Positions 3,998 through 64,000 of a DNA stretch of 64,000 nucleotides are shown one piece after another (the first letter of the stretch is position 1; the number at the start of each line of letters is the position of its first letter). Both the position numbers and the translations under genes were made by a program. The stretch comes from Cutibacterium granulosum (GTDB lineage Bacteria; Actinomycetota; Actinomycetes; Propionibacteriales; Propionibacteriaceae): contig NZ_LT906441.1 of NCBI RefSeq assembly GCF_900186975.1, positions 806,001 to 870,000 on the forward strand, given 5' to 3'. The notes under the pieces are model-generated. The model searched no databases, had not been told where the DNA came from, and worked only from the letters and a program-made list of their open reading frames with translations.

Positions 3998-4675
3998 TCA
4001 TTGCTCGCGCGGTGCTCCGGCGAGGATTGCGTCGGTTGACGAGACGCCCAGGCGGGTGGCCCCTGCCTCGATCATGGCGCAGGCCGTCTCGTAGTCGCGA
4101 ATACCGCCGGATGCCTTGACCCCCAGACGCCCGCCGACGGTGCCTGCCATGAGCTCGACTGCATGGACGCTCGCCCCGCCAGCCGGATGGAACCCGGTGG
4201 AGGTCTTGACGAAATCGGCCCCAGCGGCCTCGGCGGTCCGGCAGGCGAGCACGATCTGGTCGTCGTCGAGCGCAGCGGACTCGATGATGACTTTGAGCAC
4301 GGTGGGGCTCGGGGCGGCTCGGCGCACGGCGGCGATCTCGGCCTGCACGGCGTCGGCGTCACCGGCAATGAGCAACCCGAGGTTGATGACCATGTCCACT
4401 TCGTCGGCCCCGTTGCGCACGGCCTCGGCAGCTTCGGCAGCCTTGATGTTGGCACTGTGCTTGCCCGAGGGGAACCCGACGACCGTGCACACCTTCACCG
4501 GTCCCATGCTCACATCCTCGATCGGCAGCATCGTGGGCGAGACGCAGATGGACCAGGTGCCCAGCTGCACGGCGCGACGGGCCAGGGCTGCGACGTCGTC
4601 AGCCGTGGACTCAGGCTTGAGCAGGGTGTGGTCGATGATGCGTGCCAAGGCGGCAGCAGAGGGTCGTGCAGTCAT
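3998..4675 (-). CDS. deoC: deoxyribose-phosphate aldolase
   Basis: The 225-residue class I aldolase splits 2-deoxyribose-5-phosphate into glyceraldehyde-3-phosphate and acetaldehyde, the last step of deoxynucleoside catabolism. Visible motifs are [10 protein letters not shown] near the N-terminus, [12 protein letters not shown], a lysine in [11 protein letters not shown], and the Schiff-base lysine at about residue 157 in FVKTSTGF, followed by the phosphate-binding VKASGGIRD region. The ATG at 4675 was chosen over an in-frame upstream start because AAGGATC precedes it by seven bases and it gives the normal family length. It is monocistronic, convergent with the FHA gene and divergent from the phosphate transporter. 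The intergenic palindromes at 4745-4788 could serve either gene. Confidence 0.95.
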
Positions 4676-4744
4676 GTGAAATGATCCTTCGGGATGGGGC
4701 GTCCACCAAGAAGTCGGGCGTGTCGCCCTCCACGATATGGCGGC

Positions 4745-4788
4745 CACAGGTGAACTGAAAATGAACTTTTCATGTCACCCTGACATGA
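4745..4788. promoter_or_regulatory. candidate PHO-box-like repeats and overlapping palindromes
   Basis: Read on the minus strand, two 11-base direct repeats lie side by side, GTTCATTTTCA (4766-4756) and GTTCACCTGTG (4755-4745), giving GTTCA-N6-GTTCA as in actinobacterial PhoP boxes. The same bases form a near-palindrome, GTGA..TGAAAA-N5-TTTTCA..TCAC, at 4750-4778. It overlaps a perfect one, TCATGTCA-CCC-TGACATGA, at 4770-4788. The site lies between deoC and the PiT transporter. The sequence is observed; the function is inferred. Confidence 0.5.
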
Positions 4789-4946
4789 CCGTCAGATCGA
4801 TTAGGAGCGCATCGCGCTGAGGTCTATCGTCTTGCGTGGCCTTCGCGTTTCGAGTCGGGGACTGCACCGATCACGTCGAAACCGGAAGCATCACACCGAC
4901 CGACGTCCCTCCCGACCGGGTGAACGCGCTTCTGAGGAACACATAC

Positions 4947-6095
4947 ATGAGTTCAACACTGCTCATCGTCATCATCGTCGTCGTCACGGCACTGGCGTTC
5001 GACTTCACCAATGGCTTCCACGACTCAGCCAACGCCATGGCCACCTCGGTGGCCACCGGCGCGCTCAAACCCAAGGTGGCCGTCGTCATCGCGGCCGTTC
5101 TCAACGTCCTCGGGGCGTCCCTGTCCACGGAGGTCGCCAAGACGATCTCCGGTGGCATCGTCAACGATCAGCTCGTCACCGTACCGATGGTCTTCGCCGG
5201 TCTCATCGGAGCCATCATCTGGAATCTCGGGACCTGGCTGTTCGGACTGCCGTCCAGCTCGTCCCACGCGCTGTTCGGTGGTCTCATCGGGGCGGTGCTG
5301 GTGGAGGCCGGAATGAGTGGCATCCACGCCGGCAAGATCATGAGCAAGATCATCCTTCCAGCGCTCGTCGCCCCGTTCGTGGCAGGTATCGCATCCCTGC
5401 TGGCCACGTGGCTGGCCTACCGCCTCACCGACCACACCGCACACCACTCCTCGCGGATGTTCCTCAACGGTCAGCGGGTCTCGGCCTCCATGGTCGCGCT
5501 GGCCCACGGCACCTCCGACGGGCAGAAGACGATGGGCATCATCACCCTCGTCCTCATCGCGGCGGGATACCAGAGCTCTGGCACCGGCCCGATGTGGTGG
5601 GTCATCCTGGCGGCCGGTTGTGCCATCGGTCTGGGCACCTACTCCGGCGGCTGGCGCATCATGCGCACCATGGGCAAGGGGCTGTGCGACATCGAGTCCC
5701 CGCAAGGTTTTGCCGCCGAGACGGCTTCCACTGCCGCCATCCTGGCGTCCTCCCACCTGGGTTTCGCGCTGTCGACCACCCATGTCTGCTCGGGATCGAT
5801 CCTTGGTTCCGGTCTGGGGCGTCACACCGAGGTTCGGTGGGCCACCGCCGGGAAAATGGTCGTCGCCTGGCTGGTCACCCTGCCGGCTGCTGCGCTCGTC
5901 GGCGCCCTGACCTCGGCGATCGCCGGTCAGGGTACGTGGGGCGTCATCGTCGACCTCGTCCTGCTGGCCATCATGGCCACCCTCATCGTCCGACAGGCCA
6001 ACCAGCACAAGGTTGACCACCGGAACGTCAATGACTCCACCCAGGTGGGCGTGCGTCGCAAGGCCCCCGCCGCCACTGGAAAGGCCGCAGCATGA
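4947..6095 (+). CDS. pit: PiT-family inorganic phosphate transporter
   Basis: A 382-residue integral membrane protein of the low-affinity cation-phosphate symporter family (PiT/PHO4). The duplicated family signature is visible as DFTNGFHDSANAMATSVATGAL near the N-terminus and as MVALAHGTSDGQKTMG around residue 190. About ten hydrophobic segments surround these signatures. The start at 4947 is preceded by GAGGAAC at 4934; a longer frame reaching upstream has a hydrophilic, non-conserved extension and was not used. The stop overlaps the start of the next small membrane gene (ATGA). The upstream PHO-box-like repeat and the nearby phoU and SenX3/RegX3-like genes suggest phosphate control, which is inference. 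Confidence 0.95.
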   Translation: MSSTLLIVIIVVVTALAFDFTNGFHDSANAMATSVATGALKPKVAVVIAAVLNVLGASLSTEVAKTISGGIVNDQLVTVPMVFAGLIGAIIWNLGTWLFGLPSSSSHALFGGLIGAVLVEAGMSGIHAGKIMSKIILPALVAPFVAGIASLLATWLAYRLTDHTAHHSSRMFLNGQRVSASMVALAHGTSDGQKTMGIITLVLIAAGYQSSGTGPMWWVILAAGCAIGLGTYSGGWRIMRTMGKGLCDIESPQGFAAETASTAAILASSHLGFALSTTHVCSGSILGSGLGRHTEVRWATAGKMVVAWLVTLPAAALVGALTSAIAGQGTWGVIVDLVLLAIMATLIVRQANQHKVDHRNVNDSTQVGVRRKAPAATGKAAA

Positions 6096-6325
6096 ACATC
6101 GACTGGGCATCCCTCGGGCTGGTGGCCATCGTCACCATTGCAGCCACCGTACTCATCGTCTCCATCGTTTCCGGCGGTGCGCTCATGCTGGACCGTGCCC
6201 ATGCACGCAGCGAGGCTGGCAAGGATGGCGCTACCGGGCTCATCGTCCTGGGGTGGTCGGCCATCGGCGTTGCCGGGCTCATCGTCCTGTACGGTCTGTA
6301 CCTGCTCATCCCATACTTTCACTGA
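6092..6325 (+). CDS. small two-TM membrane protein coupled to the phosphate transporter
   Basis: This 77-residue protein has one hydrophobic helix at about residues 7-30 and a second at about 50-72, separated by a charged loop containing DRAHARSEAGK. Its ATG overlaps the transporter stop by four bases, implying translational coupling. Small membrane proteins in this position next to actinobacterial PiT genes are common, but their role is not established. It could be a transporter accessory subunit. I do not recognise a named family. Confidence 0.8.
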   Translation: MNIDWASLGLVAIVTIAATVLIVSIVSGGALMLDRAHARSEAGKDGATGLIVLGWSAIGVAGLIVLYGLYLLIPYFH

Positions 6326-6384
6326 ACCATCACGGCGTGCTGCGCACGGCGGTCATCGCGCGGCCAACGTCCTGTGTTGAGCTG

Positions 6385-6412
6385 ACGCCGGAGTCCCTCG
6401 GGGCTCCGGCGT
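6385..6412 (+). terminator. hairpin terminator after the phosphate transporter pair
   Basis: ACGCCGGAG at 6385-6393 pairs with CTCCGGCGT at 6404-6412, extended inward by CCC/GGG with one bulged T. The short loop and strong GC stem fit an intrinsic terminator 60 bases after the stop. Confidence 0.7.
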
Positions 6413-6446
6413 TCGTCGTGCTGATGGTGCAAGGCCCCTGACGACA

Positions 6447-6541
6447 CTTGAGTCCACCCTGCTCAAGAATCACGAAAAACTCTCCTTGTCGCCTTGATAG
6501 AGATCGACTCAATGGCTAGCCTTGAGTCGTTGCCACTCAAG
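6447..6541 (+). promoter_or_regulatory. dnaK promoter with two HAIR operators for HspR
   Basis: A perfect HAIR element, CTTGAGT-N7-ACTCAAG, spans 6521-6541, and a one-mismatch copy, CTTGAGT-N7-GCTCAAG, spans 6447-6467. TTGATA at 6494-6499 and TAGCCT at 6517-6522 are 17 bases apart and fit a -35/-10 pair, so the downstream operator covers the expected start of transcription. HAIR is the established binding site of HspR, which is encoded at the end of this operon, so autoregulation is expected. Confidence 0.85.
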
Positions 6542-6640
6542 GGGACCTTGGGTGGCGGAAAGCTCGATGAATCCATGCCAAGCGCTGGGTTCGAGGAATG
6601 AACAACGAACAGGACGTGACGTCCGGGAGGAATGGCAGAG

Positions 6641-8488
<1,848 letters not shown>

Positions 8489-8519
8489 CGTGATGCAGGT
8501 CTGTTGACCTGACAGCGAT

Positions 8520-8555
8520 GGGCCGCTCGTGACCCCAGACGGACACGGGCGGCCC
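8520..8555 (+). other. intercistronic hairpin between dnaK and grpE
   Basis: GGGCCGC at 8520-8526 pairs with GCGGCCC at 8549-8555 inside the 100-base gap. No U-run follows. It may act as an attenuator or RNA-stability element keeping dnaK mRNA above grpE and dnaJ, which is inference. Confidence 0.45.
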
Positions 8556-8588
8556 TCTCACATCACCCACACCCACGCAAAGGATGAC

Positions 8589-9323
8589 ATGAGCCAGAAC
8601 GACAACCTCACCCCGGACCCCGAGGATCCCCGCGACAAGGAGAAGCTGGACGCTCAGCGCGAGGAGGCCGCCGACGAGACCGCCGCCGGCGCACAGCCGG
8701 ACGGAACCGAGCAGGACGACTCCCACGGTGATGACGTCGACGACGCATTCGAGCAGATCGTCGAGGGAGTCGACGTGGAAGAGGCCCCCAGCAAGGAGCA
8801 GCAGCTCGAGACGATGCTCACCGAGCGCACCGAGGACCTGCAGCGTCTGCAGGCCGAGTACGTCAACTACAAGCGGCGCGTCGACCGGGACCGTGACCTG
8901 TCCAAGCGCTCCGGGATCGAGAAGGTGCTCGCCGATCTCATGCCCGTGCTGGACTCCGTGGCGATGGCCCGGCAGCATGGCGAACTCGAGGGCGGTTTCA
9001 AGCTGGTGGCCGACGAGCTTGAGAAGGTGAGTCGCGCCCACGGCCTGGAGAGTTTCGGTGAGATTGGCGACGAGTTCGACCCGATGCTGCACGAGGCCCT
9101 CATGCAGATGCCTCTGGAGGGAGCCCGCGTCACCTGCGTCTCGCAGGTCATGCAACCCGGCTACCGCATCGAGGATCGAGTGCTGCGCCCAGCGCGTGTG
9201 GCCGTCTCCGAGCCTGATCCCCATGCCGCCCAGGACGACTCGGAGCATGCCAATGACGTCGCCGCCACCGACACGGCTCCCGACGAGTCGTCGAATGACG
9301 ACAAGACCAAGCCGACAGACTGA
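8589..9323 (+). CDS. grpE: GrpE nucleotide exchange factor
   Basis: The 244-residue cofactor releases ADP from DnaK. It has a long acidic, disordered N-terminus (about residues 1-75, rich in Asp and Glu). A coiled-coil dimerisation helix follows, containing [18 protein letters not shown], and then the compact C-terminal wing with [19 protein letters not shown] and [24 protein letters not shown]. The start at 8589 follows AAAGGATG. The C-terminal tail is again acidic. It is the second gene of the heat-shock operon. The last codons and the stop are tandemly duplicated in the DNA (9306-9342). Confidence 0.96.
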
Positions 9324-57595: not shown

Positions 57596-58981
57596 TCACC
57601 CTTTCGCCTGCCTCGCCCGGAGAGCCGCAATGTCCAGCACCTGTGCCGAGTCCAGATCGACCTCGTCGGCCCCGTCCTCCCACGGATCGTACGGTGGCTC
57701 CTCATCCACGTCCTCCACGTAGCCCATCGAGGGGTCGTAGGGATTGACGAGCTGGTGGCTTCCGGCGGCATCGACCGGCAGCACCGAATCGGTGCTCATT
57801 GCCTCATCGGGCAGGTGCGTGAGGATGTCGTGGACGTAGCCCTGGGCAGCCTCGACGTGTGGCACTTCACGCTGTTCCCGCTGTGACTTGTACCAGCGGT
57901 AGTCGAGCACCTCGTGGAAGAACTGGGCCATGTCACGTTTGCGGGACAGCTCGGGGGGAATCTGGGCGACGACTGGCGAGAACACCTCGGTGAGCCATTT
58001 GTGTGCGACGACGCTCTCGTCCACCGACTGCAGTCCCCGCCGGGCCGCGAAGGTGTCGAGGTCGTTGAGCAGCCGTCTGGCCTGGTTCTCCTCGGTGTCC
58101 AGGCCGGTGAGACGCAGCAGGCGGCGCTGGTGGTGGCCGGCATCGACCACCTTGGGTTGGATGCGGATGACGTCCGAACTGGTCTGAATGTCGAGCTCGG
58201 CGACGTCGAATCCCAACGCATTGAGACGGCGCACCCGCGACTCCACCTGCGAGACGTCGCCGCCGGGGAACTCCTGGGGCTCGGTGAGCTCTGCCCACAG
58301 CTCGTGGTAACGAGTCTCGATGGTGTCGACGAGTTGCCGCGGGTCCAAGTTGGGGTCGAGCAGGTCGCCGGCCTCCAGGTCCAGGAACTCGCCGTACAGG
58401 TTCGTGCGGGCGATCTGCAGATCGTGCTCCCGCTGGCCGGTGGTGAGCTGATCGTGCAACTCCCCGGTCTCGGCGTCGACGAGGTAGGCGGCGAAGGCCT
58501 CGGCGTCCCGGCGGAACAACACGTTTGACAGCGAGACGTCACCCCACAGGAATCCCACCAGGTGCAGCCGTACCAGCAGGACGACCAGGGCGTCCAACAG
58601 TCGCATGACGGTTTCCGGTCGTACCCCGGACTGGAAGAGCGATCGGTAGGGTAGCGAGAACTGCAGGTGACGGGTGATGAGGATCTGATCCATGGGGTGG
58701 CCATCGGCATCACGCCGACCGGTCACCACGCCGATGGGCTCCACCGACGGCGTGTTCAGACGCATGAGGTCGTGCAGCAGTCGGTACTCATGGATGGCCA
58801 GGTGCTCGATGACCTCCTTAGCGGCATACACCGAGTCGCCGACCTTGATGAATCGCACGACGTGGCGGGAGATACCGCGCGGCAGGGCCACGAGGTACTC
58901 GGCAGGCCACTCCGCCAGCGGTGTGTCCCACGGCAGGGGGAGCAGTCGCGAGTCTGGCTTGGCGGAGAGGAAGCGTGGCAC
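57596..58981 (-). CDS. DUF4032 / kinase-like domain protein
   Basis: A 461-residue soluble protein. The first 230 residues resemble a lipopolysaccharide-kinase-like fold: GDSVYAAKEVIEHLAIHEYRLL, then LHLVGFLWGDVSLSNVLFRR, where WGDVSLSN mimics the catalytic loop of small-molecule kinases (D-x4-N). DUF4032 follows (about 230-395), and the C-terminus is very acidic (EDVDEEPPYDPWEDGADE). Function is unknown in the family. The start is GTG 58981, 15 bases after the stop of the membrane protein gene, so it may be the last member of the right-hand cluster, though a DUF4032 gene often stands alone. Confidence 0.78.
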   Translation of the reverse strand: MPRFLSAKPDSRLLPLPWDTPLAEWPAEYLVALPRGISRHVVRFIKVGDSVYAAKEVIEHLAIHEYRLLHDLMRLNTPSVEPIGVVTGRRDADGHPMDQILITRHLQFSLPYRSLFQSGVRPETVMRLLDALVVLLVRLHLVGFLWGDVSLSNVLFRRDAEAFAAYLVDAETGELHDQLTTGQREHDLQIARTNLYGEFLDLEAGDLLDPNLDPRQLVDTIETRYHELWAELTEPQEFPGGDVSQVESRVRRLNALGFDVAELDIQTSSDVIRIQPKVVDAGHHQRRLLRLTGLDTEENQARRLLNDLDTFAARRGLQSVDESVVAHKWLTEVFSPVVAQIPPELSRKRDMAQFFHEVLDYRWYKSQREQREVPHVEAAQGYVHDILTHLPDEAMSTDSVLPVDAAGSHQLVNPYDPSMGYVEDVDEEPPYDPWEDGADEVDLDSAQVLDIAALRARQAKG

Positions 58982-58996: not shown

Positions 58997-59701
58997 TCAT
59001 TCACCGCTGGCTGGGCAGGACGCGTTGGACATGCTGTCGGGTGGTTGGACGAGGGCGTTGAGGTTGGTGAGGGCGTTGGGGTGGGTGGTGAAGTAGGTGG
59101 TGTGGTTGTCGTGGATGGTGGTGGCCCAGATGTTGCGCCAGTTCTGTGCCCAGTCTGGCCATTCGGGGTGGTTGGCGGGTCCTTCGGGTAGGTCGATGGG
59201 GCGGGTGTCCAGGGCGATGAGGAGGTTGAGCAGTGCTCGGTCCACGTTGTAGGCGTAGTGGTTGATGCGGACTCGGTGGCCGTCATCATCGGTGATGACG
59301 TAGCTGTCGGGTTTGAGGGTCAGGGCACGGATGTGGTGGGCGTCGACGTGGTGGGTGAAGGGTCCCAGGCGGGTGGTGATGGTGTGTTCGTCGATGTGGA
59401 TTCGGTAGAACAGGCCATGCAGGACCATGAGGTAGCTGGGGATGGTGATGGCCAGCTGGCAGATGATGGCCAAGGGTTTGTCCTCGGGATGTGAGACGAT
59501 GATGCCCCACAGGCACAGCGTGGTGATGGTGGCGGTGATCAGGCTCACGATGATCCATGGTCGTGAGGGGCGTAGGTGTTGCGGGTCGCCCGGGTCCTGT
59601 GCCCTCGGATCGTCGGGCGTTGTGGTGGCTGGGTGTTGCCGGGTTTGTTGGCCCCATTGTTGTGGGGGGTCGAAGGTGAGGGGTTCGACGGTCATGGTCA
59701 T
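58997..59701 (-). CDS. two-TM membrane protein with PH-like domain (paralog 2)
   Basis: A 234-residue protein: a Pro/Gln-rich cytoplasmic start of 45 residues, two hydrophobic helices at about 48-68 and 74-97, then a soluble domain with HIDEHTITTRLGPFTHHVDA, suggesting a bacterial PH fold. The C-terminal 55 residues (NWRNIWATTIHDNH, THPNALTNLNALVQPPD) match the protein encoded just upstream (59726-60415) closely, so these are tandem paralogs. The gap between them is 24 bases. No catalytic residues are seen; a scaffold or regulatory role in the cluster is inferred. Confidence 0.75.
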   Translation of the reverse strand: MTMTVEPLTFDPPQQWGQQTRQHPATTTPDDPRAQDPGDPQHLRPSRPWIIVSLITATITTLCLWGIIVSHPEDKPLAIICQLAITIPSYLMVLHGLFYRIHIDEHTITTRLGPFTHHVDAHHIRALTLKPDSYVITDDDGHRVRINHYAYNVDRALLNLLIALDTRPIDLPEGPANHPEWPDWAQNWRNIWATTIHDNHTTYFTTHPNALTNLNALVQPPDSMSNASCPASGE

Positions 59702-59725
59702 CTTTCTTCACACGGTGGCTGCGGG

Positions 59726-60415
59726 TCAGGTGTCGTAGTGATCAGGTGGTTGGGTGAGGGCGTTGAGGCGGGCAAGCTGTTCCGGGTGGGTGGCGTAGAA
59801 GCGCTGGTGGTGTCCGTAGGCTTCCCCGGCCAGGATGTTGCGCCACAGTTGGGCTGCCTGTTCCCAGTCAGGATCGGTGATGTCTGCTCCGGGCAGACGG
59901 ATACGGCGATGGTGGAGTTCTTCGAGCAGACGTAGGTAGACCAAGGTGTAGTCGAAACGGTTGTAGTCGAGGTTGATCTTGGTTGTGCCTGCCCAGACCT
60001 TGTAGCGCTCCATACCGGTGCCGATTCGGCTGACCTGATCGAAATGGATCTCACGGTAGAACAGATGACCGAAACGCGTCCAGACCTTGTCACGATCAAC
60101 ACCAAAACGCCGCCACAAACCATGAGCCAGCAACCAATAACCCGACAAGGAACCCAAGATGAGGACAATGTATTCATAAATATCAGCAGTGCCATGAACG
60201 GCATCATGGATGAGCTGGGGTGGCCCTCCCCATGTCAATCCTGCTGCCCCGACGAGTCCCATGGGAACCAGAATCCGTGCCTGGGAAAAGATCCGCGGCT
60301 GGGCCGGGTCACGACCCACACCCCACGACGGTTCCCGGGGACGGTCCTGGCCATCCCCCAGCTGCCCCGACGATCCCTGCACATCCGGAGAAAAACACCG
60401 CGGCTCAACACTCAT
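59726..60415 (-). CDS. two-TM membrane protein with PH-like domain (paralog 1)
   Basis: A 229-residue paralog of the downstream protein. Two hydrophobic segments (about 45-62 and 76-97) precede a soluble domain (GVDRDKVWTRFGHLFYREIH) and the shared C-terminus with LWRNILAGEAYGHHQRF and HPEQLARLNALTQPPDHY. Its ATG overlaps the lipoprotein stop by four bases (ATGA), so translation is coupled. The frame is also open far upstream, but that region belongs to the lipoprotein gene in another frame. I do not recognise a named family. Confidence 0.75.
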   Translation of the reverse strand: MSVEPRCFSPDVQGSSGQLGDGQDRPREPSWGVGRDPAQPRIFSQARILVPMGLVGAAGLTWGGPPQLIHDAVHGTADIYEYIVLILGSLSGYWLLAHGLWRRFGVDRDKVWTRFGHLFYREIHFDQVSRIGTGMERYKVWAGTTKINLDYNRFDYTLVYLRLLEELHHRRIRLPGADITDPDWEQAAQLWRNILAGEAYGHHQRFYATHPEQLARLNALTQPPDHYDT

Positions 60416-61407
60416 CGCTTCACCACTTTCGTGGCCTTGGTCATTTCCTGCTGGAAATCCGAGTGCAGGCTCTCGAGTTCGTTCTTGTTCCTGCCGATCC
60501 AGGACTTCTGGTACTCGGTGTCCAGAGAGTACTGAAGGGCGGGGATGTTGTCCTTGCGGGCGCACGTCATGGCGGCGAGTTGATGGTCCACGCTGAGGTC
60601 GGAGCCGTCCTTGGTGAGTTCGGAGGAGGCCTTCGGCGGTTCGCTCCAGCTCGATACCGGATGACCGGCGTCCTTCATGCACTGCACCCAGTTCTGCTTG
60701 AGCGGGGCGAGCCGGGAGTCGTGCTCCACCCGGTCGAGGGAGTCGTCCATCCCCTTGGCGACGAGGTCGCCGAGTTGCTGGTGAGGTGCTGTGCTGCCAG
60801 TGACGGAGAGTCTGGCCAGACTCTCCGCGGTGCACCCACCCTTGGGCAGTGGCTTGCCCTGGTCGTCCTTGATGGAGTTGTGGTCCAGGGCGGTGCCGTC
60901 GAGATTCTGGCCGGTGAGCACGGCGTAGTCCCGGGGAGAGGGGTCCCAGTTGTCCGGTGTGCCATCGGTGGTCGTTGGCTGGGTACTGGTCGTTGGACGT
61001 GGGGCATTCGCGGCCTGTGGGGTGGGGCTTGCCTTGGCCCGGATGAGTTTCTCGTCGAACGGTTTGTACCGCCCCGCAATGTCGAGGGCAGTGGTGGTGT
61101 TCTCGTCCTGCTCCTCGGGATTGGGGGCGTAGCTGGCCTTGAATCGGGCGGCACACTGGGCGCGCAGGATGTCGGTCGCCGTGGAGATGGTCGTGAGTTC
61201 GGCCTGGGTGGGCTGATACTTCTGCAGGGGGAGCTTCACCTGTGACACCGAGGTCAGCGGTGTGAGGTTGCTGGCGGACGTACTGACGGAGGGGCCCGCT
61301 GTCGGGGCGGACGTCTGCTGCGGTGTTTCGGACGAGCTGCACGCGGTGAGTGCCACGAGACAGGCGCATGCCGAGACGGTCAGGGTACGAATCGTGGGAG
61401 AGGTCAT
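60412..61407 (-). CDS. hypothetical lipoprotein
   Basis: A 331-residue exported lipoprotein: signal peptide with lipobox ALTAC, mature Cys at about residue 23, then a Ser/Thr/Pro-rich stretch and a mostly helical domain. Conserved-looking cysteines occur at about residue 84 (RAQCAARFKASY), in KGGCTAESLARLS, WVQCMKDAGHPVSS and MTCARKDN, perhaps two disulfides. AAGGA precedes the ATG. It is followed in the operon by the two PH-like paralogs. Function unknown; location next to a Ser/Thr kinase with an extracellular domain suggests an envelope role. Confidence 0.78.
   Translation of the reverse strand: MTSPTIRTLTVSACACLVALTACSSSETPQQTSAPTAGPSVSTSASNLTPLTSVSQVKLPLQKYQPTQAELTTISTATDILRAQCAARFKASYAPNPEEQDENTTTALDIAGRYKPFDEKLIRAKASPTPQAANAPRPTTSTQPTTTDGTPDNWDPSPRDYAVLTGQNLDGTALDHNSIKDDQGKPLPKGGCTAESLARLSVTGSTAPHQQLGDLVAKGMDDSLDRVEHDSRLAPLKQNWVQCMKDAGHPVSSWSEPPKASSELTKDGSDLSVDHQLAAMTCARKDNIPALQYSLDTEYQKSWIGRNKNELESLHSDFQQEMTKATKVVKR
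60804..60827. repeat. 24-base perfect palindrome inside the lipoprotein gene
   Basis: CGGAGAGTCTGG is followed directly by its reverse complement CCAGACTCTCCG, with no loop, within codons for ESLARLS. Confidence 0.85.
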
Positions 61408-61606
61408 GGGATGTCCTTGGCCAAGGAATGCACGGGGTTGTCATGGCCAAGAGCGTGGCCGGGTGATCTTGATCTTTGGTGCCCAACAATAGCCATGGCC
61501 GCGCAGGACAAAGCTGACCTTTGCTCACGACATGTGAACGGGGCGACAAAGGGGACTTGCTCCACCACAAGTTGACCGTATGCGTGAAGTATGTCAGGCA
61601 AGAGAC

Positions 61607-63601
61607 TCACGACCCTTTGGCAACGATGGTGATCTGGCTCTCCTGCGCTTGGTAGTTGCCGATCTCCGCACCAAGGCTGCACGTGGCTGGGTGTAGAGCG
61701 CTTACGTCATGGCCATCAGGTGTGATGGCCACGGCTCCTGAGCACCGGTCAGTGAGACGGAGATCTTCCTCTTTGCCACCTGTGATGTCGGTGAGGATGC
61801 TTGTCGGGTTGGGACTGGACGGCGTGGTGTAGATCGGGGTGAGCTCGTTCTCCCCATCCGGCCAAGTGCCCAGAATCGTCACAGGGATGGCAGAGCCTTC
61901 CTTGACGCGGGAGGGTACCTTGACACGCATCTCCTGAAGACGCTGCAGGCTGTACGCCGTTGAGTTCGTGGCGTCATCGTTGAGCACTTCATCGGTAGCC
62001 TTTGCTTGACTCTGGAGCCAGGCCTGCAGGTCTGCTTGGTTGCTGATCGTCACATCCTTGGCGGACAGCGTTGCCGTGACGGTCACTGGATCCTGTTGCG
62101 CCAAGGTCTTGAGGGAGATCGTCCATCCGCACTTGGCGTCGATCAATGTGAGCGCTGGGCTGTGTGGAGCGACCGTGGCGGCATCATCCCAAGTGACGTT
62201 CGTACAATTGTCACCTGACTTGATCACCTCGAGCACATCTCCACCGAGTGGTTGCTTGATGGTGCCGTAGGTGAGGGTGTACTTCAGCGTGCCTCCGGTG
62301 ATCTCCACCGAGCGGCCGACGCTGAGACCGGACGGATAAGTCTGTATCGGTAGAGATGCGCTGAGTCCGTCAACAGTTTTTTTCGATGACTCCTGTCGTG
62401 CTCCCCGATGCCGCCCGGCGAGCATGACACACACGGTGGCCACGGTCGCTGCAACGAGGATTGCTGCTGCGTAGATGATGATCCGATGGGTACGGTTGGA
62501 CCACCAAGAATTCTTGGTCTCCGTATCCTTACCTACAGAATCGCCCAACACCTCCACGTCTGGTTCCGGGCCAGCCTTGAGAATGGTGGCCGATGCCGGG
62601 CTGTCGAGGGTGCGTAGTTGCTCCAACTCGATGGGATCTGGGGGATTGTTGTCCTTGACAGTGAGCCTCTGTTCATCGTCAGGAGAGGCTTTCAACGACG
62701 TTGGTTGACGTAGCATCGTCATCGCATGTGGTGCCAACGCTCCTTCCGGAACGGTGAGCGCCGGTTCGTTCTTGACATCGGGGATGAGGCCGAATGCCTG
62801 ATCGGCCACTTCGGCTGCGCTGAGTCGATGCGCCGGATTCTTGGTGAGCATTCCGGAAATGAGATCCCACACCCGTTTGTCAAGACCCGGGATCATCGCA
62901 GGTATGGATTGTAGATGACGCTGGGCCACGGCGTAGGGATTGTCCTGCTCCGTACCGAACGGCAGTTGCCCCGTTAACGTCTGATACAGGCTCACGCCCA
63001 AGGCATACACGTCAACGCTGGGACTTAGCGTGTTGTTCGAGATGAACTCGGGCGCCATGTAGTGAGCTGTACCAACCATGTGTGTGGTCGTTGAGGAACC
63101 ACCGAGGATCTTCGCAATACCGAAGTCCGCCACCTTCACCCCAGGATCCTCCGCATTCGAGTCAGTGGTGAGGATGATGTTGTCGGGCTTGATGTCGCGA
63201 TGCACTACGTCACGCTCATGGGCATAGACCAAGGCTTGGGCCACTTGGACCACTACTGCCAGAGCAGTTGCTGGGGTCAATGGCCCATCGGTCGTCAGCT
63301 TGGTGCCAAGGGTGGGCCCGGTTGCAAGCTCCATGATGATTCCGAGCATGCCTTGGTCGACGATGAGGTCTCGCACCGCGATGATGCGTGGACAATCGAG
63401 CTCGGTGAGGGTGAGTCGTTCATGGATGAATCGCTGCACCAGTTGTGGATCGTCATCGAGCTGTGAGCGTAAAATCTTGATGGCGATTCGTTCGTCGTGG
63501 ACCCGATCGATCCCCTCATAGACACGACCAGATGCCCCTTGCCCAATCCTGCGGATGGCTTGGTACCCCGATCCGAAATCGAATGGAAGAGCGCTGCTCA
63601 C
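61607..63601 (-). CDS. membrane Ser/Thr protein kinase (PknB-like)
   Basis: A 664-residue receptor-like kinase. The catalytic domain (13-275) has the Gly-rich loop IGQGASGRVYEG, Lys42, HRDIKPDN (catalytic Asp136), DFG at 159-161 and the GTAHYMAPE substrate loop. An acidic juxtamembrane linker (275-368) leads to one transmembrane helix at about 373-396. The outer domain (397-664) is a beta-rich region with no PASTA repeats that I can see; it has cysteines around DNCTN and DAKCGW. Translation begins at GTG 63601, overlapping the upstream ATPase stop by four bases (GTGA). It probably phosphorylates FHA-type or secretion components. Confidence 0.92.
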   Translation of the reverse strand: MSSALPFDFGSGYQAIRRIGQGASGRVYEGIDRVHDERIAIKILRSQLDDDPQLVQRFIHERLTLTELDCPRIIAVRDLIVDQGMLGIIMELATGPTLGTKLTTDGPLTPATALAVVVQVAQALVYAHERDVVHRDIKPDNIILTTDSNAEDPGVKVADFGIAKILGGSSTTTHMVGTAHYMAPEFISNNTLSPSVDVYALGVSLYQTLTGQLPFGTEQDNPYAVAQRHLQSIPAMIPGLDKRVWDLISGMLTKNPAHRLSAAEVADQAFGLIPDVKNEPALTVPEGALAPHAMTMLRQPTSLKASPDDEQRLTVKDNNPPDPIELEQLRTLDSPASATILKAGPEPDVEVLGDSVGKDTETKNSWWSNRTHRIIIYAAAILVAATVATVCVMLAGRHRGARQESSKKTVDGLSASLPIQTYPSGLSVGRSVEITGGTLKYTLTYGTIKQPLGGDVLEVIKSGDNCTNVTWDDAATVAPHSPALTLIDAKCGWTISLKTLAQQDPVTVTATLSAKDVTISNQADLQAWLQSQAKATDEVLNDDATNSTAYSLQRLQEMRVKVPSRVKEGSAIPVTILGTWPDGENELTPIYTTPSSPNPTSILTDITGGKEEDLRLTDRCSGAVAITPDGHDVSALHPATCSLGAEIGNYQAQESQITIVAKGS

Positions 63602-64000
63602 CGTAGGCTCCTCACACTTGCAGTGACACCTTGGATGAGGGTAGCCGTACCGTTCTGGCAGCCATATCCTCGTGCCTCACTCATCGTCACCCGTGGGTGA
63701 CGTGGTAAACGGACACCTAGCAGATCACCGTCGTAGTCGGTATCTGGAACAAGTAGGACTCCGAGTCGGGACTTGCGAATCTTTCCCGTCCAATGGCTGT
63801 ACAAGGACCGCAGATCGTTGTTGCGACCACTCACGATGAACAGGAATGGCGATTCTGGACTGTTCAAGGCTTGGGTCAACACCTGACTTTCGTCGGCGAT
63901 CATGTGTGCATCGTCGATCATGATGATGCACGGCTCTGGGGAACCACCTTTCTCTGCCACGCGGTTGAGTAATTGATCGGGAGGCATGACCTCTGGCAAC
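63598..64000 (-). CDS. EccC/FtsK-SpoIIIE-type ATPase, C-terminal fragment (cut by window edge)
   Basis: The last 134 codons of a larger gene that continues beyond the right edge. The fragment shows a Walker B-like CIIMIDDAHMI, then a sensor strand FLFIVSGRNND, and the C-terminal signature RKSRLGVLLVPDTDYDGDLL followed by GVRLPRHPR. This is the usual end of the third ATPase domain of type VII secretion EccC proteins and related actinobacterial FtsK-like proteins. Its stop overlaps the kinase start (GTGA), so the two are translationally coupled. Whether WXG100 substrates or other Ecc components lie beyond cannot be seen. Confidence 0.75.
   Translation of the reverse strand, partial: LPEVMPPDQLLNRVAEKGGSPEPCIIMIDDAHMIADESQVLTQALNSPESPFLFIVSGRNNDLRSLYSHWTGKIRKSRLGVLLVPDTDYDGDLLGVRLPRHPRVTMSEARGYGCQNGTATLIQGVTASVRSLR

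What the first reader, a model, noticed from the sequence alone, without database searches (positions are those of the whole stretch)
58997..64000. EccC-like ATPase, Ser/Thr kinase, lipoprotein and tandem PH-like paralogs in one unit
The sequence shows an EccC/FtsK-type C-terminus coupled (GTGA) to a one-pass Ser/Thr kinase. A Cys-containing lipoprotein follows, coupled (ATGA) to two tandem paralogous two-TM proteins, then a kinase-like DUF4032 protein. T7SS loci are known to pair EccC ATPases with kinases and FHA proteins. The lipoprotein and the duplicated PH-like pair match no Ecc component I know. This may be a variant kinase-regulated secretion or envelope system and is the best candidate here for something undescribed.
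Basis: partly seen in the sequence, partly recalled or inferred. Interest (0 to 1): 0.62.

Follow-up and report, generated by a model that had tools for sequence, protein, structure and literature searches.

The report
Undescribed type VII secretion variant, plus immunity genes

Summary
In detail: the genes are where stated, and the GTGA and ATGA overlaps are real. Extending past the window edge gives a complete type VII secretion (T7SS) locus: coiled-coil envelope protein, periplasmic-binding-like protein, ATPase (N-terminal beta-grasp-like domain, FHA, FtsK/SpoIIIE domains) and Ser/Thr kinase, with divergent WXG100 and RHS-toxin genes.

This module recurs in Propionibacteriaceae, Actinomycetaceae and Nocardioidaceae and on a Rothia plasmid. 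Its ATPases form one fully supported clade, apart from EccC (T7SSa) and from T7SSd-like ATPases. EccB is absent. The coiled-coil protein, the binding-like protein and the kinase ectodomain have no counterpart in the T7SSd-like loci examined. By the criteria of Garrett et al. 2024 it is an undescribed subtype.

The PH-like pair belongs to immunity-type arrays: in four sibling genomes such genes directly follow one specific RHS toxin C-terminus; here that toxin is missing, so they are orphans. The lipoprotein belongs to another cassette (I36-inhibitor-like protein, sometimes with HlyD/ABC exporter). DUF4032 is a core-genome neighbour.

Functions are inferred from sequence; none was tested.

The parts
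63598..64000 (-). C-terminal end of the T7SS ATPase (1436 aa in full, genome C1:869598-873908): N-terminal beta-grasp-like domain, FHA domain, TM region, three FtsK/SpoIIIE NTPase domains
61607..63601 (-). One-pass Ser/Thr kinase with intact catalytic residues and a C-terminal ectodomain conserved across the module; core component
60412..61407 (-). Lipoprotein; not a core component. Relatives sit beside I36-inhibitor-like secreted proteins, in two cases with HlyD/ABC genes; probably a flank leftover or an orphan immunity gene
59726..60415 (-). PH-like protein a: orphan immunity-type protein of the RHS type-A toxin family
58997..59701 (-). PH-like protein b: tandem paralogue of a, same assignment
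57596..58981 (-). DUF4032 kinase-like gene: a neighbour, not part of the system

Best explanation
The window edge cuts a five-component type VII secretion system of a subtype that I do not find described: WXG100 protein, ATPase with an N-terminal beta-grasp-like domain plus FHA domain, active one-pass Ser/Thr kinase, membrane-anchored periplasmic-binding-like protein, and a ~950-aa exported coiled-coil protein. Inferred working: the ATPase exports WXG100-partnered RHS polymorphic toxins; the kinase phosphorylates a threonine that the ATPase's FHA domain reads, gating assembly or activity; the coiled-coil and binding-like proteins reach into, or sense across, the cell wall. The PH-like pair are orphan immunity proteins, kept without their cognate RHS toxin C-terminus. 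The lipoprotein is a passenger from an unrelated I36-type cassette, possibly also an immunity gene. Shown here: gene content, conservation, ATPase clade, intact kinase and FHA residues, toxin/PH-like linkage. Inferred: secretion, the phosphorylation circuit, immunity.
For: ATPase is EssC/EccC-like (EssC model 6.8e-145) with FHA and FtsK domains. Coiled-coil + binding-like + ATPase occur together in 19 named loci, 17 with the kinase ectodomain too, in G020 and on a Rothia plasmid. Neither extra component was found at ATPase loci outside the clade. One ATPase clade with support 100, apart from EccC and T7SSd-like ATPases. EccB absent in the genus, present in 26 of 57 relatives. Kinase catalytic residues invariant in 15 loci; FHA phosphothreonine-reading residues invariant in 16 rows. 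PH-like genes directly follow the RHS type-A C-terminus in all four genomes that have it; G000 lacks that toxin.
Against: No secretion, phosphorylation or immunity was measured. The beta-grasp claim rests on predicted topology; PDB profile and YukD searches gave no hit. The published T7SSc-T7SSj sequences themselves were not compared; the T7SSd reference loci are unnamed and were assigned by gene content. A PH-like gene also sits beside the kinase in Winkia, so a T7SS-accessory role is not excluded. The PH-like linkage rests on few genomes of one genus.
Confidence: 0.75

Rival explanations
1. The whole unit from ATPase to PH-like pair is one secretion machine; lipoprotein and PH-like proteins are subunits or accessories of this species' T7SS.
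For: The genes lie on one strand with small gaps, and lipoprotein and PH-like a overlap by ATGA. A PH-like gene also lies beside the kinase in Winkia.
Against: Neither is found in the other module loci tested, apart from Winkia. In G004 the PH-like array surrounds an RHS gene far from the ATPase. Lipoprotein relatives occur in a genome of the genus without this ATPase (G008).
Confidence: 0.1
2. It is simply T7SSd: the coiled-coil and binding-like proteins are diverged TsdI and TsdH.
For: Same plan: FHA-ATPase, membrane kinase, WXG100, large exported envelope protein, Rhs substrates, Actinomycetota (PMC11217815). The ATPase N-terminal domains are homologous (hhalign E 6e-9).
Against: No similarity between the coiled-coil protein and the Ig-like TsdI-type protein; no C-terminal TM in the coiled-coil protein; kinases align only over the kinase domain; ATPases in separate fully supported clades. 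The ~430-aa binding-like protein is unlike a short one-TM TsdH.
Confidence: 0.12
3. The ATPase is an ordinary FtsK/SpoIIIE DNA translocase with a kinase neighbour by chance.
For: Shared FtsK/SpoIIIE domain.
Against: FtsK proper is elsewhere in the genome; EssC/EccC models match far better than FtsK (6.8e-145 against 1e-10); FHA domain, WXG100 gene and conserved neighbours.
Confidence: 0.01

Closest known systems
T7SSd (Garrett, Higginson and Palmer 2024, PMC11217815; Olsenella, Bifidobacterium)
   Same: FHA-bearing EssC-like ATPase, membrane Ser/Thr kinase, WXG100, large exported envelope protein, Rhs-type substrates, Actinomycetota; homologous ATPase N-terminal domain
   Different: No Ig-like TsdI or short TsdH; coiled-coil and binding-like proteins instead; different kinase ectodomain; separate ATPase clade
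T7SSa (ESX, mycobacterial type)
   Same: EccC-related ATPase and WXG100
   Different: EccB not found in the genus; ATPase has FHA and N-terminal domain; separate ATPase clade
T7SSb (EssC, EssB, EsaA; Bacillota)
   Same: FHA-bearing ATPase; membrane (pseudo)kinase-type partner; long extracellular component
   Different: Kinase residues intact (EssB is a pseudokinase); EssC model below its cut-off; FHA phosphothreonine residues conserved
Polymorphic-toxin immunity arrays (Rhs/LXG systems)
   Same: Tandem paralogues directly after one toxin C-terminal type, orphan copies where the toxin is missing
   Different: No known immunity family matched; membrane-anchored, possibly PH-like

Membership tests
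T7SS (broad) | EccC/EssC-type FtsK-related ATPase | tested here: met
   EssC, EccCa and EccCb are the best family models, each below its equivalog cut-off
T7SS (broad) | WXG100 protein encoded at the locus | tested here: met
   L004:16267-16614; PF06013 9.7e-4 and TIGR03930 4.6e-4, both below cut-off; conserved beside most module loci
T7SSa (ESX) | EccB present | tested here: not met
   0 of 9 genomes of the genus; 26 of 57 relatives as working control
T7SSa (ESX) | EccD, EccE, mycosin present | not tested
   Only the YukD-domain family was searched (no hit); none at the locus by eye
T7SSb | ATPase passes the EssC equivalog cut-off | tested here: not met
   484.5 bits against 778.4
T7SSd | FHA-bearing ATPase, membrane Ser/Thr kinase and WXG100 | tested here: met
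T7SSd | TsdI: very large Ig-like protein with C-terminal TM | tested here: not met
   948-aa coiled-coil protein without C-terminal TM; no profile similarity to the TsdI-type protein, which has Ig-like domains
T7SSd | TsdH: short one-TM protein | tested here: not met
   No such gene between the tightly packed core genes; the binding-like protein is ~430 aa with a PBP-type match
T7SSd | ATPase in the TsdC clade | tested here: not met
   Separate clades, both 100; the reference loci were assigned to T7SSd by gene content only
Polymorphic-toxin immunity protein (PH-like pair) | Gene directly downstream of a specific toxin C-terminal type | tested here: met
   4 of 4 genomes with the type-A RHS C-terminus; none without PH-like genes has it
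Polymorphic-toxin immunity protein (PH-like pair) | Protects against the cognate toxin | not testable with these tools
   needs a co-expression assay
PASTA kinase (PknB/Stk1) | NF033483 equivalog score (cut-off 450) | tested here: not met
   236.4 bits, and no PASTA domain called

The most novel reading that the evidence does not exclude
A sensing T7SS: the anchored periplasmic-binding-like protein and the kinase ectodomain detect a ligand or a neighbouring cell, the kinase phosphorylates a target read by the ATPase's FHA domain, and toxin export is switched on; this would be a T7SS with a dedicated ligand-binding trigger.
Probability: 0.2. Interest if true: 0.75.

Novelty: new variant of a known kind. 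Interest (0 to 1): 0.6.

Why it matters
The published T7SS census (T7SSa to T7SSj, PMC11217815) lists one non-ESX subtype in Actinomycetota, and its text does not mention Propionibacteriaceae or Cutibacterium. A second, widespread subtype would give skin and mucosal bacteria (Cutibacterium, Actinotignum, Winkia, Arcanobacterium) an unrecognised toxin-exporting machine; one report called an Actinotignum T7SS 'Esx-1' (PMC10692110). An intact kinase and an FHA-ATPase in one small operon make phospho-control of a T7SS directly testable. The N-terminal beta-grasp-like ATPase domain, which is homologous in the T7SSd-like ATPase, may explain why no separate ubiquitin-like protein was found for T7SSd.

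Tried and rejected
Lipoprotein and PH-like proteins against Pfam, NCBIfam, PHROGs and (PH-like) PDB profiles: nothing above noise. PH-like model: mean pLDDT 58 from two sequences; fold matches weak (E > 0.1), several of them PH/PTB folds. YukD family in the genus: no hit. PDB profile of the ATPase N-terminus: no ubiquitin-like hit; the fold search of the 200-residue model was filled by FHA domains, so the N-terminal domain was barely tested. Coiled-coil profile against the PDB gave only unrelated coiled coils. Promoter and terminator scans were at chance level. Literature search for a T7SS in Cutibacterium found nothing relevant. Considered and dropped: ordinary FtsK; PASTA-type kinase; DUF4032 as a component (present in all nine genomes of the genus, beside this system only in the window's genome).
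Full report
1. What is in the window. All reading frames described are present at the given coordinates. The ATPase C-terminus (63598-64000) overlaps the kinase start by GTGA; the lipoprotein stop overlaps the PH-like a start by ATGA; PH-like a and b are paralogues (27% identity over 230 aa). The window is C1:806001-870000 of a single-contig 2,175,244-bp genome. Contig lengths of the sibling genomes G001, G005, G006 and G007 coincide with Cutibacterium porci, avidum, modestum and namnetense records, so the genus is Cutibacterium. The species is not identified (C. granulosum would fit by size; my inference).

2. Beyond the window edge. The neighbouring sequence shows: ATPase of 1436 aa (C1:869598-873908, -); a 429-aa protein with an N-terminal TM and a weak but over-cut-off Peripla_BP_1 match (874021-875310, -; the only two PDB profile hits are Leu/Ile/Val-type binding proteins, E 0.004-0.006); a 948-aa coiled-coil protein with an N-terminal export-like signal (875288-878134, -); a WXG100 gene (878267-878614, +; homologues start at the internal ATG, giving 93 aa); an RHS toxin of 1863 aa (878858-884449, +); and a 235-aa membrane protein overlapping its stop (884446-885153, +; here IMM). 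GC falls from about 65% to 52-62% over the island.

3. The core machine. The ATPase carries an N-terminal domain, an FHA domain, a TM region and three FtsK/SpoIIIE stretches. The first and third P-loops are intact and the middle one has Thr for Lys (GTTGSGKS, GMPGSGTS, GPARSGKS). Its best family model is EssC (484 bits, cut-off 778), then EccCa and EccCb, all below cut-off. The kinase has its catalytic residues invariant in 15 loci, but for one HRD-to-HQD change. The FHA model matches GarA/OdhI-type FHA domains at Z about 18, and its GR, S, H and NG residues are invariant in 16 rows. The first ~70 residues of the ATPase are predicted with high confidence as strand-strand-helix-strand-strand-helix-strand, the order of a ubiquitin-like beta-grasp. 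This is a topology argument only: a PDB profile search gave no such relative, and the fold search was filled by FHA matches.

4. Conservation. A scan of GTDB genomes with the ATPase alignment returned 50 loci. Nineteen hold homologues of both the coiled-coil and the binding-like protein next to the ATPase, and 17 of these also the kinase with the same ectodomain: Cutibacterium, Arachnia, Propionibacterium, Microlunatus, Actinotignum, Schaalia, Arcanobacterium, Winkia, Marmoricola, unnamed Actinomycetaceae and Propionibacteriaceae, and (without kinase in range) Nocardioides. A second genus of the family (G020) and a Rothia terrae plasmid (NZ_CP062961.1, both proteins annotated 'hypothetical') hold it too. 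Neither component was found (E < 0.01) at the ATPase loci outside this clade that were tested. An ATPase tree puts 23 module rows, with four rows from partial, degraded or module-less loci, in one clade with SH-aLRT 100, apart from EccC (100) and T7SSd-like ATPases (100); an earlier tree agrees. RHS similarity lies near 16 of 21 module loci.

5. Comparison with named subtypes. EccB is absent from all nine genomes of the genus but present in 26 of 57 relatives. The closest published subtype is T7SSd (PMC11217815): TsdA, TsdC, TsdD kinase, TsdH, TsdI. Against them the coiled-coil protein shows no similarity, the kinases match only over residues 6-261, and the ATPase N-terminal domains are homologous. 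The window's system therefore works like T7SSd but fails its TsdH, TsdI and clade tests. By the authors' own criteria (distinct ATPase clade plus distinct gene set) it is a further subtype.

6. The PH-like pair. An alignment search over 246 genomes of the order found PH-like genes in six genomes, all of this genus, mostly as tandem arrays. In G001, G002, G004 and G007 they lie immediately downstream of an RHS gene; in G004 also on its other side, at a locus far from that genome's ATPase. The RHS C-termini of these four genomes are homologous over their full length (43-72%, 'type A'); those of G000 and G006 form another type (40%, 'type B') followed by IMM-type genes that are 31% alike. A search with the type-A-specific part finds it only in those four genomes. 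So PH-like genes track the type-A toxin, and in the window they are orphans. Immunity is the best reading (my confidence about 0.75); a PH-like gene beside the kinase in Winkia keeps an accessory role open.

7. The lipoprotein. Relatives in G008, G011 and G056 sit next to small secreted peptidase-inhibitor-I36-like proteins, in two cases followed by HlyD-like and ABC-transporter genes. In G008 this cassette lies next to a guaB-like gene whose homologue flanks the island here at C1:885196-886902, which suggests a leftover of the insertion locus. Its ATGA overlap with PH-like a may reflect a secondary operon of orphan immunity genes; this is speculation.

8. Mechanism and certainty. Shown: gene content, conservation, clade, intact catalytic and phosphothreonine-reading residues, toxin linkage. 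Inferred: export of WXG100/RHS, kinase-to-FHA signalling, reach across the cell wall by the coiled-coil protein, ligand sensing by the binding-like protein, immunity by the PH-like pair. None has been tested at the bench.

Noticed in passing
L048 (G002, a 2,495,001-bp genome of the same genus), 4253-8907: The core system is reduced to a fused scrap of ATPase C-terminus and kinase ectodomain, with RHS genes in pieces: the secretion system has decayed there while toxin and PH-like genes remain.
   Followed up: partly
L208 11158-22674 (Rothia terrae plasmid p2, NZ_CP062961.1): The complete module lies on a plasmid; its WXG100 protein is annotated 'pyrophosphorylase' and two components 'hypothetical'.
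   Followed up: partly
L239 7756-8115, L240, L241 (T7SSd-like ATPase N-termini): The T7SSd-like ATPase has an N-terminal domain homologous to the beta-grasp-like one here (hhalign E 6e-9), which may be the ubiquitin-like component reported missing from T7SSd.
   Followed up: partly
L068 8357-11362, L069 5573-11280, L070 9441-10943: A cassette of small secreted I36-inhibitor-like protein plus lipoprotein, in two cases with HlyD-like and ABC genes, of unknown function; in G008 the lipoprotein gene is split by a transposase gene.
   Followed up: no
Acidimicrobiia and other loci L125, L130, L131, L133, L134: ATPases related to this clade have a WXG100-like gene beside or overlapping them but no coiled-coil, binding-like or kinase homologue in range: a possible simpler T7SS.
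   Followed up: no
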